Shown piece after piece: positions 46,421 through 51,948 of a stretch of 64,000 bases of DNA. Made by a program: the position numbers and the translations under genes. Source of the DNA: Bryobacterales bacterium (GTDB lineage: Bacteria; Acidobacteriota; Terriglobia; Bryobacterales; UBA6623); assembly GCA_028819215.1 (NCBI GenBank), contig JAPPMG010000042.1, positions 62,001 through 126,000 on the forward strand. Reading direction: 5' to 3'. The notes beneath the pieces are model-generated. The model had not been told where the DNA came from. It saw nothing but the letters and a program-made list of their open reading frames with translations, and searched no databases. How positions within the stretch are numbered: position 1 is the first letter of the stretch; each line of letters begins with the position of its first letter.

Positions 46421-47188
46421 TTCAAGGCCGCCGATCAGGGAGTCCCAAGCACGAGACACGCAAAGATATTCGAAGTCCGGCGGTATCGTATGCAGATCAA
46501 AAACGCGACCTGCGGCCTGTTCGACATCTTGGGCACCTACGATCCGACTCGCGAAGGATTGCCTGCGATTTGGCATCACTGTGCGGGCCGGATCACGACA
46601 GCTGATGCGCGAGCGACTGCGAAGCTACGGGCTGGCTCGGACAGAGACCCGTATCGACGTTCCGAAATATTGGGGAGAGCAAGCCGCCTGCAACTGGCCG
46701 CAGAACTCGAAGCGCACCCGGTAAAACGGGGCCGCGCTGCCTTGGGTTGCGGGCGCCAGTGCCAGCCATGCCAACCCGAGTTGCTTTACCAAGCGCGAAT
46801 CTTGGGAGACTTGACCGGAGGCCAAGGTCCACTCCGGAGCCGAGGTAGGCACTCTGCACATCTTGGGTGCCCCGCCTTGATTCACCTCCGCGGGCAGACC
46901 GAAGACGAACGGGAGCGGAAACACCGAAGATCTCGAGCGCCAGCCCGGTCGAGCTGCCGGCTCATAGTGAGAAGGACATCGAGCGATCCTAGCAATCTCG
47001 TCGTAGGTGGTCTGACTTCGACGGCCATTGGTGTCGCAGCCCTGAGCGAGGCTGCAGGTTGTCCAGCCAGATCGATTTCTTGACTAACGGCACGGTCCCG
47101 AACTTCCTGCCTTCTGTCCTTGGTCGAGTCCGGCTCAATAGGTTCGAGTTGCGCCTCTGAGCCTCGGAGCCTTCCTCGCCGATAATGG
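46421..47188. other. Gene-poor segment with repeat copy A
   Basis: No gene is supported in this 768-base stretch. A plus-strand frame of 197 codons starting at 46490 exists but lacks a ribosome-binding site or known domain. The main recognisable feature is the diverged repeat copy beginning at 46487. Its proximity to tatT marks the left edge of the accessory block. Confidence 0.5.
46487..46640. repeat. Diverged direct repeat, copy A
   Basis: TATGCAGATCAA at 46489 and the bases that follow align without a gap to 52187-52340, exactly 5,700 bases away; I counted 79 of 130 identical positions. The plus strand of both copies reads MQ(I/V)KN with shared LxDI, TxDPxRxG and PAI. On the minus strand both encode PNR, DVE and RVxDLH. 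The absence of gaps suggests that both derive from one coding sequence or mobile element. Confidence 0.62.
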
Positions 47189-48274
47189 TTGGTCTTGCTT
47201 CAGGAAAAAGAATTCGACTTCCCTATCGTCCCCAGTCCTGCCCTGGAGCGCGCGGCGCAAGACTGCTGTCCGCTCTTGGCAGATGACGAAGCGCGAGAGG
47301 AGTGGATTGCCTGCTGCTCGCGGCGATTCTTCCCTCTGGCCAAACGCATCGCCGACGATGACGATCTTGCCCGCGAAGCACTGCAAGTCAGCTGGATCAA
47401 GATCTTCCAAGCGGCCAACGTCAGCGTGAGAGGCCCTACGGCTTGCCCGTGGGTCGCCTCGGTCGTCGCAAACAGCGCCAAGGATCTTCGACGCCAGCAG
47501 CGACGACGCAGGGAAGTGTCCCTTGAGGCGGTGGGGACTCGTAGCGCAGGTCAAGACTTAGAAGCCATGGTGCAGGAACGTCAGTTGCTCACATTTCTGC
47601 ACGAGATGATCGCGATGCTCCCCGACACATACCGGCGAGTTGTGGAGTTGCGGCTACAAGAGGGCGTCTCCACCAAGCAAACGGCCCGGCGCCTCGGAAT
47701 CTCTCGCTCCAACGTGACTACTCGCCTGAACCGGGCCGTGCGGATGCTCAAACGCAGTATCAAGTCCCGCATGGAGCCACGCAATCCGCATCGCTGGACC
47801 GGAGATCTCAATGCGCCGTGGGAAGGCTTGTTTCCTCATTGGGTTCAAGTTCTCGAAACTCCTTTGTGTAGGAGCCTTTTGCAAAATTCGCGCTGCATAG
47901 TCAGAATCGTCCATATGTCGCGCTGTCGAGAGGCGTGTCTGCTAGATCTTGAGATCCTCACTGTGGACGAACGAATTTTGCAAAAGCCTCGTAGGCCTTC
48001 ATATAGGCACTCGTGCCCATCGTTGGGGCCTCGTAGTCCCGAACACCCTTGGCGAACAACCCACTCCCTGTCAAGCTATCCATACTTTGGAGCGAATGTG
48101 AAGAAACTTGTGACCGTTCCGCCATTACTGACGTTTATTGAAGTAGGGGAGCACGAAAATGCGACTGCAACTCATCGCCGTTATCGTCTTGACAGGCTCT
48201 GTATCCGCTATCGCGGCCACACAGCCTATCGTAGTCATGCCCAACATCGATCTGTTCGACGGCCTCGAGCCTGA
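47189..48274 (+). CDS. ECF-like RNA polymerase sigma factor, 3' end altered by MITE
   Basis: Residues 30-110 show sigma region 2 (WIACCSRRFFPLAKRIADDD, LAREALQVSWIKIFQ) and residues 135-190 region 4 (LPDTYRRVVELRLQEGVSTK, QTARRLGISRSNVTTRLNRA), as in extracytoplasmic-function sigma factors. After residue 195 the sequence loses all family character. A 119-base MITE begins at codon 228 and the frame runs through it into the next gene's region. The native stop has therefore probably been lost. The start is a TTG at 47189 with poor context. It precedes the Cys-rich/propeller pair and could control it. Confidence 0.78.
   Translation: MVLLQEKEFDFPIVPSPALERAAQDCCPLLADDEAREEWIACCSRRFFPLAKRIADDDDLAREALQVSWIKIFQAANVSVRGPTACPWVASVVANSAKDLRRQQRRRREVSLEAVGTRSAGQDLEAMVQERQLLTFLHEMIAMLPDTYRRVVELRLQEGVSTKQTARRLGISRSNVTTRLNRAVRMLKRSIKSRMEPRNPHRWTGDLNAPWEGLFPHWVQVLETPLCRSLLQNSRCIVRIVHMSRCREACLLDLEILTVDERILQKPRRPSYRHSCPSLGPRSPEHPWRTTHSLSSYPYFGANVKKLVTVPPLLTFIEVGEHENATATHRRYRLDRLCIRYRGHTAYRSHAQHRSVRRPRA
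47872..47990. mobile_element. MITE with 19-bp terminal inverted repeats and 4-bp target duplication
   Basis: GAGCCTTTTGCAAAATTCG at 47872-47890 and the reverse complement of 47972-47990 (GAGGCTTTTGCAAAATTCG) match at 18 of 19 bases. Both ends are flanked by GTAG (47868-47871 and 47991-47994), a 4-base target duplication. The element is 119 bases and encodes no transposase. The TIR sequence and 4-base duplication with central TA resemble IS5-family elements (inference). It lies within the 3' part of the sigma-factor gene. Confidence 0.85.
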
Positions 48275-48707
48275 TGCGCGAGTGACGGCGTTTCTCAAGG
48301 CTACCGAATCGCCTAATCAATCCGGCTCCTGCATTCCCAGGTCATCCGAGGCAGGCGTACCGGAACGTCTTCCTTGGCTGGACTCGGTCTTCGGGTGGGT
48401 CGAGGCGCATGTGCTGAGAGTTGAAACGGCCCTAGCATCCGGAATAGAGTGCGATACCGGCTGTTCGGGGCATTACCAAGGCCCGAAGCACCTTCTCGGC
48501 TGTGGTCTCTACGGAGGTTGCGGGACCTACTGTGCCTCCGACCCCACCGAGTTCTATTGGGAAGATGGCTGCATCGACTGCACCATCCAGGATCCCGATA
48601 ACGATTGCGATGGGTGTTCCGTCGATCAAGCATGCCAGCACCCGCCTATTGGCGGGTCGGACAGCAATTCGGGAGCGAGCCCCAGCCCAGGAGGAGAAAC
48701 CCCATGA
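48159..48707 (+). CDS. Secreted cysteine-rich protein
   Basis: A 182-residue protein with signal MRLQLIAVIVLTGSVSAIAA and eleven Cys, ten of them in the C-terminal half in CxxxC and CxxC arrangements (IECDTGC, CGLYGGCGTYC, CIDC, CDGC). A Gly/Ser/Pro-rich tail ends it. GGGGAG lies about 8 bases before the ATG. It overlaps the following gene by 4 bases (ATGA). No family recognised; disulfide-bonded or metal-binding secreted protein is likely. Confidence 0.82.
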   Translation: MRLQLIAVIVLTGSVSAIAATQPIVVMPNIDLFDGLEPDARVTAFLKATESPNQSGSCIPRSSEAGVPERLPWLDSVFGWVEAHVLRVETALASGIECDTGCSGHYQGPKHLLGCGLYGGCGTYCASDPTEFYWEDGCIDCTIQDPDNDCDGCSVDQACQHPPIGGSDSNSGASPSPGGETP

Positions 48708-49708
48708 AGACACCCTATCTCACGATCCACGGAACTTGCATCCTGCTGGCCTTGCTTGTTCTGAACACAATTAGTGCTGCCGGTCCTGACCGTTTAGACA
48801 TCGGAATCCATCTCATTCCAGGACCCGCCGAACTACGTGTCGAGACCGCCGGCATCTGCCGCTGGCGGGTTTCGGTGATTCGCGCGGATGCCAAGAACGA
48901 ACCGCACTATGCGCTCATCCGCCATGATGGCACAGTGGCGTTCCGTAACAGCTTCTGGGCAGATGGCGCGATACAGTCCACGATCATGGACATGGCACCG
49001 CTCGACAGGGGTGGGGCGGTCGTTTCGGGGGGGATGGTCCAAGCGGACGGAGCGATTGCACGGGGTGCGATGATCGTTCGACCGGACGGCAGCATCGAGC
49101 GCTTCATCCGCACGGATGACTATATCCCTCATCGGGTAGCGGCCGGGGAAGACGACTCGGTCTGGGTGTTCGGACGGCAGCGAGGGGACGAGGCGGGGAT
49201 CGTCCGCAAGTACAGTCTCGACGGCGAATTCCTAGGGGAGTTCCTACCTCGCTCGATGTTTGGCTCGGAGTTGCATCCGTCCATGCCGGCCGGCAGAGCT
49301 GGCCGTTCGTTCGCGAGACGACTCGGGGAAGGTGTCGGCTTCTATTCCGGGGTGGCGAGTGAATGGGTCGAGCTAGACGCCAACGGGGGACTCGTTCGGC
49401 GGGTTCCCCTGCCGTTGGTCCAAGTTCAGTTCCTCGCGGTGACGAGTTCGGGACGGGTACTGGCATGGATCTCAGGCCAAAGATTCGGAATCTACGAACT
49501 CGCGCCTGGCAAGGAATCTTGGGCAGCGATTCCGGGCTGGGTCGGCAGTATTGATGCACCTCCGTCCGTGGGGTTGTTGCACGGTGCCAGGGGAGAACGC
49601 GTAGCGCTGCAGGAACTGCCTGCGCTGCCCAACCTACGCTTCAGCAGCGTCCCGGGACAAAGGCAAGTCGATCACCTCTCTCCACATGATTCTCCCGTGC
49701 GGAAATAG
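48704..49708 (+). CDS. Secreted propeller-like protein coupled to the Cys-rich protein
   Basis: A 334-residue exported protein (signal YLTIHGTCILLALLVLNTIS) whose body shows repeated short strands, e.g. YALIRHDGTVAFRNSFWADG, GAMIVRPDGSIERFIRTDDY and GIVRKYSLDGEFLGEFLPRS, like NHL/six-bladed propellers. The ATG at 48704 overlaps the upstream stop (ATGA) and GGAGGAG lies 7 bases before it, so the two are translated together. No enzyme motif is visible. Confidence 0.75.
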   Translation: MKTPYLTIHGTCILLALLVLNTISAAGPDRLDIGIHLIPGPAELRVETAGICRWRVSVIRADAKNEPHYALIRHDGTVAFRNSFWADGAIQSTIMDMAPLDRGGAVVSGGMVQADGAIARGAMIVRPDGSIERFIRTDDYIPHRVAAGEDDSVWVFGRQRGDEAGIVRKYSLDGEFLGEFLPRSMFGSELHPSMPAGRAGRSFARRLGEGVGFYSGVASEWVELDANGGLVRRVPLPLVQVQFLAVTSSGRVLAWISGQRFGIYELAPGKESWAAIPGWVGSIDAPPSVGLLHGARGERVALQELPALPNLRFSSVPGQRQVDHLSPHDSPVRK

Positions 49709-50284
49709 CCGTTCTCCGGTCCTTAGGTGGAGCGGCTGCTCGGCTTCATCGCCTTGATCCGCGACTGCGATCGCCCAGTTGTCCCTGTCCGCGAGCTGAG
49801 AGCTCGGATGTTCTGCGAAGACTGCAGTCTTCCTGCGACGCGTGCGATCGTCAGGGCCACGAGCGCTACCACTCCATCATCGTTTCGCGGGCATACCTCG
49901 CATTGCAGGGAATTTCAATTCTCCGAGGATGCTGGAGCTAGCGACGGAGCAGACAGCAATCGTTGATTCCCCAACACCGAAAACGGGCGTCAAGACGCCG
50001 ATCACTCGCGCAAGGAGCGATCTGGAGCCGCCAATGATGTCTCACCGAGCCTCCCCTCGTCGTTGCGAAGCCCCGTTTCGCCGGAATCTGGGCTGGCATG
50101 TCGAGAATTGAATTTGCCTGCCTCGCATTGATCCCGATCAGGTCGTCCGCAACTACCGCTGAATGTGCCTAGCATCGGAAACGCAGTCGAGCGGGAGGGG
50201 CGTTACCGCGCACCTACCTCATGGATCCGAGTGTGCGCGACCGAAGCACTCGGTTCCTCAGATGGCAGACCTCGCTACGCGGGC
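49709..50284. other. Intergenic stretch without a supported gene
   Basis: About 576 bases between the propeller-like gene and the AbiEii-type gene, which end toward each other. Short frames exist, but none has a ribosome-binding site, a domain or a match to neighbours. No repeat with the flanking copies was seen. Confidence 0.4.
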
Positions 50285-51415
50285 CTAGCGTGACGGCCCG
50301 AACTCCCTCTCCGGTTCGGCCCGACGTGGGACCGGGCGGTAGCGAACGTAGCGAGGTGGATCGGGCTTGGCAACTCTCGCGAGTGCCTCGGCAAGCCCCT
50401 TGCTGGCCGGTCCAGCGTTGCAATCGCGCATCAAGATGTCTGTGAGGTCCGCGCCGGAGAAGTCGGCTCCCCGCAGGTCGGCGCTGGCCAATACCGCCCC
50501 GCTCAGGTCGGCGTTCCGAAGGTTGGCGTTCCGAAGATCCGCGCTCGAAAAGTCGGCCCTTCGCAGGTCTGCCCGCTCGAAGTTCATGCCACACAAGACA
50601 GCCCCGACGAATTTCCCGTCGCTAAGATCCGCTCGGGAACCTCGCTGGCCATCCGATTCGAGCCAGATCTTGTGCAGAGCCAGTACGTCCGCAAGCGACC
50701 GTTCGCCGGAAATGGACTGCTCAATGATCAGTTGCCCGCGATGGTGCATCTGCTCGACAATCGCGATCCTGAACGCCAGCGCTCGATCATCAGCGGTGGC
50801 TACGTCTCCTAGCAGTGCGTCGTCTTGGAATACCCGGCGATACCGATCTGCCAGGCGCTCGTGGTGCCTGCTGAATCGGTCAGCTCGCAGAATCTGCTCG
50901 GTTGAGAAACTGTCTCCATAGGACTCTGCCAAGAACCCCAGGTCGTAGAGGTCTCTCGCCTTGGTCCGGTCGTCCGCGGCATTCATCTTCTGATCGAACA
51001 AGGCCGGAATCTTGTAGGTGCGAATTCCATCCACGATTTCGATATCGTCCGCTTGCGGTATGTTTCTGAAACTCAACTCCACCTTCAGCAATTGATCTGC
51101 GTTGTTCGCACGGTTGATGTAGTGGACATGGAATCGTCGTCCCTTCCACATGGGGAGACCCCGCCTGAAGGCAGACATCGGAACATCGACCTCTCGCAGG
51201 CCACGCCGTACACGGTTCTTTATCCGGACCCGCTTTGCGCGGCCGCAATCGAAGTCGAGGTCGACAGAATGACGGTCCAACCCATAAAGCAACGCCAGCG
51301 CAGTCCCTCCCTTCAGCACGAGGGGGGTGTCTTGCATCTCGAGAGCGATCTCTCGCATGATGCGTTCGTGGAGTGCTTGTTCCGCGCTCAGCCGAACACT
51401 ACGGTGGGGAGCCAT
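50285..51415 (-). CDS. AbiEii-type nucleotidyltransferase fused to pentapeptide repeats
   Basis: Residues 1-240 are an AbiEii/AbiGii toxin-like nucleotidyltransferase with all four family motifs: LKGGTAL (34-40), DLDF (52-55), KVELSFR (111-117) and QKMNAADDRTKARDLYDL (142-159). Residues 261-329 are about 14 pentapeptide repeats (ADLRRADFSSADLRNANLRN and following), forming a right-handed beta-helix. AbiEii proteins inactivate tRNA and cause growth arrest in phage exclusion; the repeat domain is not part of the known proteins I recall. It overlaps the upstream gene by 28 bases, implying a two-gene unit. The basic C-terminal tail (351-376) is probably disordered. Confidence 0.9.
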   Translation of the reverse strand: MAPHRSVRLSAEQALHERIMREIALEMQDTPLVLKGGTALALLYGLDRHSVDLDFDCGRAKRVRIKNRVRRGLREVDVPMSAFRRGLPMWKGRRFHVHYINRANNADQLLKVELSFRNIPQADDIEIVDGIRTYKIPALFDQKMNAADDRTKARDLYDLGFLAESYGDSFSTEQILRADRFSRHHERLADRYRRVFQDDALLGDVATADDRALAFRIAIVEQMHHRGQLIIEQSISGERSLADVLALHKIWLESDGQRGSRADLSDGKFVGAVLCGMNFERADLRRADFSSADLRNANLRNADLSGAVLASADLRGADFSGADLTDILMRDCNAGPASKGLAEALARVAKPDPPRYVRYRPVPRRAEPEREFGPSR

Positions 51416-51948
51416 GCGTCGTGGAGTTCCTTTTCTTCAGGGGACAGCTGGTTCCGGAGCGGCTTGAGGTACTCCTCGACCAAATGTTCTACGTGCTCAG
51501 GGGCAAAAAGCCATTGGTTGATGTTGTGGACCGGGACGTGCCTTGGAAACTCGGCGCACCAGCACCCTTGGGTATCGACAAGCACGTAGTCCGCAATCGC
51601 ACGATAGTGGTTCGCCACCCACACCGGCCCGCAGCCGGGCGGGATATACAGTCCCGCAATGACGTGGGCCATGTCGCGGACGCCCTTGCTTCCGAGGCTC
51701 GGAGTTGTGTCCGACCAGCCGCCCGGCCCGGCGAGCTTCAGGGTACGGGGATTGTCAATGGACGTGACGAACGGCACGTCTCCGTGCCAATCTCCGGTGT
51801 CCTCGCCGGGAAGGCGAAGATTGAGGGCCACCGAATATGACAAATAGCGTGTTGGAGTCGTGACCGGAAACCGGACGGCTTGGTGGTACTTTCCGATCCC
51901 TGGATTCCAGAAAGTCGGTAGAAGATCCTCTGAGCTGGAGTCGGACAC
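51388..51948 (-). CDS. Unknown protein paired with the AbiEii-pentapeptide toxin
   Basis: A 186-residue soluble protein without signal or membrane segment (FPVTTPTRYLSYSVALNLRL, GEDTGDWHGDVPFVTSIDNP, EEYLKPLRNQLSPEEKELHD). It is not the winged-helix AbiEi antitoxin. Its position directly upstream and 28-base overlap with the toxin-like gene make it the obvious candidate for the antitoxin or regulator. A Gly-Pro-Trp-rich middle and a WCAEFPRHVPVHNINQWLF stretch are distinctive, but no family is recognised. Confidence 0.75.
   Translation of the reverse strand: MSDSSSEDLLPTFWNPGIGKYHQAVRFPVTTPTRYLSYSVALNLRLPGEDTGDWHGDVPFVTSIDNPRTLKLAGPGGWSDTTPSLGSKGVRDMAHVIAGLYIPPGCGPVWVANHYRAIADYVLVDTQGCWCAEFPRHVPVHNINQWLFAPEHVEHLVEEYLKPLRNQLSPEEKELHDAWLPTVVFG

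What the first reader, a model, noticed from the sequence alone, without database searches (positions are those of the whole stretch)
47189..49708. Sigma factor, secreted Cys-rich protein and coupled propeller: possible undescribed secreted system
Seen: an ECF-like sigma gene is followed by a signal-peptide protein with eleven Cys and, with an ATGA overlap and a strong ribosome-binding site, a secreted propeller-like protein. The small Cys-rich partner and large propeller recall the pairing of Cys-rich NVEALA-type peptides with six-bladed propellers in Bacteroidota, but the sequences are different. Inference: the propeller may handle, display or recognise the Cys-rich product.
Basis: partly seen in the sequence, partly recalled or inferred. 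Interest (0 to 1): 0.65.

Follow-up and report, generated by a model that had tools for sequence, protein, structure and literature searches.

The report
Paired secreted Cys-rich and propeller proteins
Acidobacteriota carry a recurrent, apparently undescribed gene pair, one gene for a small secreted cysteine-rich protein and the next for a secreted beta-propeller; in this genome's lineage a dedicated sigma factor probably switches the pair on, but what the pair does is still unknown.

Summary
The window (Acidobacteriota, Bryobacterales) has an ECF-like sigma gene, a secreted 11-Cys protein and, with an ATGA overlap, a secreted beta-propeller. The sigma ORF's last ~155 codons are read-through, not gene. 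Neither partner matches a curated family searched. The pair is conserved: in 257 Bryobacterales genomes all 38 matches to the Cys-family profile lie within 620 bp of a propeller of the same family (32 directly upstream, same strand); 17 are independent of the seed set. More pairs occur in other Terriglobia families and one further Acidobacteriota lineage. The Cys proteins share a hydrophobic N-terminus, an LF.G motif, a V.A step and framework Cys around a highly variable domain. Seven of 67 loci add a membrane-anchored thioredoxin-like gene. All five sigma-linked modules (four independent) carry a TGTGAY-N16-18-NGTT promoter-like motif; 19 others lack it. The module is accessory: 94%-identical relatives lack it here, and two congeners keep a propeller but have deleted the Cys protein. 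Best reading: an exported disulfide-rich precursor with a dedicated propeller partner; binding, processing and target are untested. Methylamine-dehydrogenase-type cofactors are ruled out by missing tryptophans; NVEALA membership is not met by sequence.

The parts
47189..47803 (+). ECF-like sigma factor (regions 2 and 4); start codon uncertain; the ORF is open to 48274 but the C-terminal extension is not conserved
   Evidence: families; G012 homologue stops near 47800; homologues near four other modules
47869..47993 (.). small insertion with 22-bp terminal inverted repeats (91% complementary), absent from the G012 copy of the locus
48108..48135 (+). putative promoter of the linked sigma factor, TTGTGAC-N17-CGTT
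   Evidence: 2 exact hits in the 5.86-Mb genome; 5 of 5 sigma-linked modules, 0 of 19 others
48159..48707 (+). secreted Cys-rich protein (182 aa, 11 Cys): signal peptide, LFDGLEP motif, ALA step, variable Cys domain
48704..49708 (+). secreted beta-propeller protein (334 aa), overlapping the Cys gene by ATGA
46446..50260 (.). accessory segment carrying the module between the TRAP genes TAtT and DctP; absent from 94%-identical congeners

Best explanation
It is an accessory secretion module. The first gene makes a small exported Cys-rich protein that looks like a precursor: an N-terminal signal or anchor, a conserved LF.G..P motif, a V.A (here ALA) step that looks like a cleavage site, then a variable Cys-rich domain. 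The second gene makes an exported beta-propeller that most likely is its dedicated binding partner (handling, presenting or recognising it). Shown here: gene pairing, conserved framework, selection on all three genes, accessory status, and linkage of a sigma factor with a shared promoter-like motif. Read from sequence: export signals. Inferred: disulfide formation (in some loci by the adjacent membrane-anchored thioredoxin-like protein), cleavage at the V.A step, binding of the Cys protein by the propeller, and sigma control. The target (signal, antagonism or surface structure) is not determined.
For: All 38 Cys-family matches in 257 Bryobacterales genomes lie within 620 bp of a same-family propeller, 32 directly upstream on the same strand; 18 were not in the seed alignment, one of these being the mirror copy of a seed on a palindromic contig, so 17 are independent. 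Pairs also occur in other Terriglobia families and one further Acidobacteriota family. Conserved framework: F and G of LF.G, V.A before the domain, and Cys columns 58, 98, 102, 115, 125, 150, 159. Divergences of the two partners are correlated: Mantel r 0.37 in f2 pairs alone, 2 of 5000 permutations as high. A thioredoxin-like gene with CxWC adjoins 7 of 67 propeller loci. Promoter-like motif in 5 of 5 sigma-linked modules, 0 of 19 others. Purifying selection. Propeller fold.
Against: No complex could be modelled and the Cys protein did not fold (pLDDT 30), so the interaction is untested. About half of the propeller loci have no detectable Cys partner, and G010 and G011 keep an intact propeller with the Cys protein deleted, so the propeller has a role of its own or other partners. 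The Mantel correlation may partly reflect shared species history, and nearest relatives of the two partners often differ. The V.A step is read from sequence only.
Confidence: 0.5

Rival explanations
1. Toxin and immunity: the variable Cys-rich protein is an antagonistic effector against related bacteria and the propeller neutralises it in the producer.
For: Variable domain behind a conserved leader; accessory site beside an AbiE toxin-antitoxin pair; G010 and G011 lost the Cys protein but kept the propeller, as an orphan immunity gene would be kept.
Against: No toxin or defence family match; at over 300 aa the propeller is long for an immunity protein; orphan propellers are about as common as paired ones.
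Confidence: 0.17
2. Surface or matrix component: the Cys-rich protein is a structural or adhesive protein displayed through the propeller.
For: Both proteins carry export signals; conserved framework with variable residues; lineage-specific sigma control.
Against: No repeat, anchor or sorting domain was seen; location not tested.
Confidence: 0.17
3. Two-subunit redox enzyme built like methylamine dehydrogenase: Cys-rich light chain, propeller heavy chain, MauD-like thioredoxin.
For: Same division of labour: small Cys-rich protein, propeller, and a thioredoxin-like gene in 7 of 67 loci.
Against: No Pfam match for the Cys proteins and none above cut-off for the propellers scanned. Three of 20 Cys proteins have no tryptophan at all, which excludes Trp-derived cofactors (TTQ, CTQ) as the family's chemistry. 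Orphan propellers persist.
Confidence: 0.07

Closest known systems
NVEALA-type Cys-rich peptides with neighbouring six-bladed propellers in Bacteroidota (from memory; no paper in the library mentions NVEALA)
   Same: Small exported Cys-rich protein encoded beside an exported propeller; a short conserved motif just before the Cys-rich part.
   Different: No sequence match of 20 Cys proteins to any Pfam family; motif is LF.G..P plus V.A, not NVEALA; different phylum; sigma-linked in this lineage.
Methylamine dehydrogenase (MauA light chain, MauB propeller, MauD) (from memory)
   Same: Cys-rich small protein, propeller and thioredoxin-like protein in one locus in some genomes.
   Different: No Pfam match for either chain; no conserved Trp; thioredoxin-like gene in a minority of loci only and absent in the window.
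ECF sigma factors with linked target genes
   Same: Sigma gene near a gene carrying a shared -35/-10-like motif with near-constant spacing.
   Different: No anti-sigma gene was recognised beside it (no dedicated search), and the target is this two-gene module.

Membership tests
NVEALA family (Bacteroidota) | Match of the Cys-rich protein to the family's Pfam model | tested here: not met
   20 members scanned against all of Pfam-A, no credible match up to E 1; presence of the NVEALA model in this copy was not checked separately
NVEALA family (Bacteroidota) | Neighbouring exported propeller | tested here: met
   38 of 38 matches; homology to the Bacteroidota propellers was not tested
Methylamine dehydrogenase | Conserved Trp pair in the light chain (TTQ cofactor) | tested here: not met
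   3 of 20 Cys proteins contain no Trp; no Trp column is conserved
Methylamine dehydrogenase | Match of light or heavy chain to Pfam models | tested here: not met
Methylamine dehydrogenase | Linked thioredoxin-like maturation protein | tested here: inconclusive
   AhpC/TSA-type CxWC protein in 7 of 67 loci, none in the window
ECF sigma factor | Match to the ECF model above its cut-off | tested here: met
   TIGR02937, 59.3 bits against 42.9
ECF sigma factor | Adjacent anti-sigma factor | not tested
   None obvious among neighbouring ORFs, but no dedicated search was made
Beta-propeller | Propeller fold | tested here: met
   Model pLDDT 55.7, pTM 0.61; NHL and WD40 chains at Z about 14, rmsd 3.0-4.5 over about 170-230 residues; number of blades not settled

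The most novel reading that the evidence does not exclude
A phylum-wide, undescribed class of exported disulfide-rich precursors, each with its own propeller receptor or carrier, that diversifies its Cys-rich domain behind a constant leader and acts between cells (signalling or antagonism).
Probability: 0.25. Interest if true: 0.8.

Novelty: new variant of a known kind. Interest (0 to 1): 0.6.

Why it matters
Acidobacteriota are abundant and little of their secreted biology is known. This gives a defined two-gene family with a recognisable signature, a candidate dedicated sigma factor with its promoter, and natural deletions (G010, G011) that can be tested directly. If the Cys domains are variable ligands read by cognate propellers, it would be a new type of ligand-receptor or effector-immunity system.

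Tried and rejected
Fragment of a larger protein: rejected; free-standing gene with its own start and a conserved partner. Chance Cys-rich ORF: rejected by dN/dS and family conservation. Known family: Pfam, NCBIfam and PADLOC gave nothing for the Cys protein or the window propeller above cut-off; a PDB sequence search gave only weak propeller hits and nothing credible for the Cys family. Viral copies of the propeller: none found. Structure of the Cys protein: failed (pLDDT 30). The second exact genomic hit of the promoter pattern (C90:12055) lies in what looks like another sigma gene read antisense, by eye, not upstream of a module. Literature: nothing on such a pair in the library searched. 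The methylamine dehydrogenase heavy chain was not among the fold matches shown; that is not proof of absence.

Full report
Observation. The window lies in a Bryobacterales genome (Acidobacteriota, Terriglobia; taxon inferred from record titles of close relatives), at G000:C28:62001-126000. The sigma ORF is 361 codons but only about the first 205 are sigma factor. In congener G012 the homologue ends there; in the window the frame runs on through a 117-bp element with 22-bp inverted ends that G012 lacks.

Pair conservation. A propeller profile (A1, 8 proteins) hits 83 of 257 genomes of the order. Looking upstream of these hits showed short exported Cys-rich ORFs in many unrelated loci. A profile of 20 such proteins (A3) hits 38 places in 32 genomes. 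Every one is next to a propeller: 32 upstream on the same strand, 5 downstream, 1 on the other strand, all within 620 bp. The seed proteins were chosen because they lie beside propellers, so only the 18 non-seed hits count as a test; one of these is the mirror copy of a seed on the palindromic G012 contig, leaving 17. The wider propeller profile (A4) finds 69 of 399 genomes of the class and 13 of 396 drawn across the phylum. Cys partners were seen in several of these further loci (L115, L117, L118, L119, L121, L124; L143). In the phylum sample the Cys profile finds one genome besides the window's own, so its reach outside the order is limited.

Anatomy. The Cys proteins of the seed set are 147-187 aa with 7 to 16 Cys; the L118 ORF has 23 Cys in 256 codons. 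Constant parts: hydrophobic N-terminus, LF.G (F in 18 of 20, G in 16 of 20), one Cys, V.A (V in 15, A in 18 of 20), then framework Cys. The rest varies; nearest-neighbour identities are mostly 25-41 percent. A constant leader before a variable domain suggests a precursor; cleavage is inferred. The window protein departs from V.A and has ALA-S instead. The propeller has a signal peptide and a propeller fold in a moderate-confidence model. Seven of 67 propeller loci also have a thioredoxin-like protein with a hydrophobic N-terminus, in six of them with the motif CxWC visible, usually directly after the propeller.

Regulation. Sigma factors of one subgroup lie near five modules of this family (G000, G012, G010:C54, G002:C1 at 3.63 Mb, G016:C4). 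G000 and G012 are close copies, so four are independent. All five have a TGTGAY-spacer-NGTT motif upstream of the first gene; none of 19 other modules has it; the shuffle frequency per region is about 0.005. The motif was spotted by eye in these regions before it was counted, so the contrast with the 19 controls matters more than the shuffle value. The exact form TTGTGAC-N17-CGTT occurs twice in the whole genome, once here. This supports sigma control but was not tested by experiment.

Evolution. Relatives at about 94 percent DNA identity lack the module at this site: G008 lacks 46447-50260 and G009 lacks 46446-51387. G010 and G011 carry the propeller on contigs away from this TRAP locus (86-87 percent protein identity), with the Cys gene cut down to its signal-peptide start and no sigma gene beside it. 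The propeller stays intact; dN/dS between these two is 0.31. The module is therefore accessory and the propeller can persist alone.

Interpretation. Co-occurrence, gene overlap and export of both proteins make a physical partnership the simplest reading. Orphan propellers and the deletion in G010 and G011 keep a toxin-immunity arrangement open. A methylamine-dehydrogenase-like enzyme is unlikely because three Cys proteins contain no tryptophan and no Pfam model matches. NVEALA membership was not met by sequence; the resemblance is of arrangement and rests on memory (one search found no paper).

Limits. G002's Cys gene is frameshifted. About half of the propeller loci have no partner that these searches can see, which may mean absence or divergence. 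The interaction, the processing and the target are untested.

Noticed in passing
window 50288-51415 (-) and 51391-51948 (-): AbiEii-type nucleotidyl transferase fused to pentapeptide repeats, with an AbiEi-like gene beside it, in the same accessory region.
   Followed up: partly
window 47869-47993: 117-bp element with 22-bp terminal inverted repeats; similar 27-mers at G000:C68:117237 and near a contig end, C52:34.
   Followed up: partly
L015/L016 (G012:C462): The 34,864-bp contig is a perfect reverse-complement palindrome, probably an assembly artefact.
   Followed up: no
L020:6385-6897 (-): Cys-family gene in G002 broken by a frameshift near homopolymer runs; sequencing error or real loss not resolved.
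   Followed up: no
L063:4285-5986 (-): In G002 a sigma gene is followed directly by a propeller, with the promoter motif but no Cys gene between.
   Followed up: partly
window about 46490 and 52200: Similar short stretches (translations MQIKN... and MQVKN...) flank the accessory region; possible repeat family.
   Followed up: no
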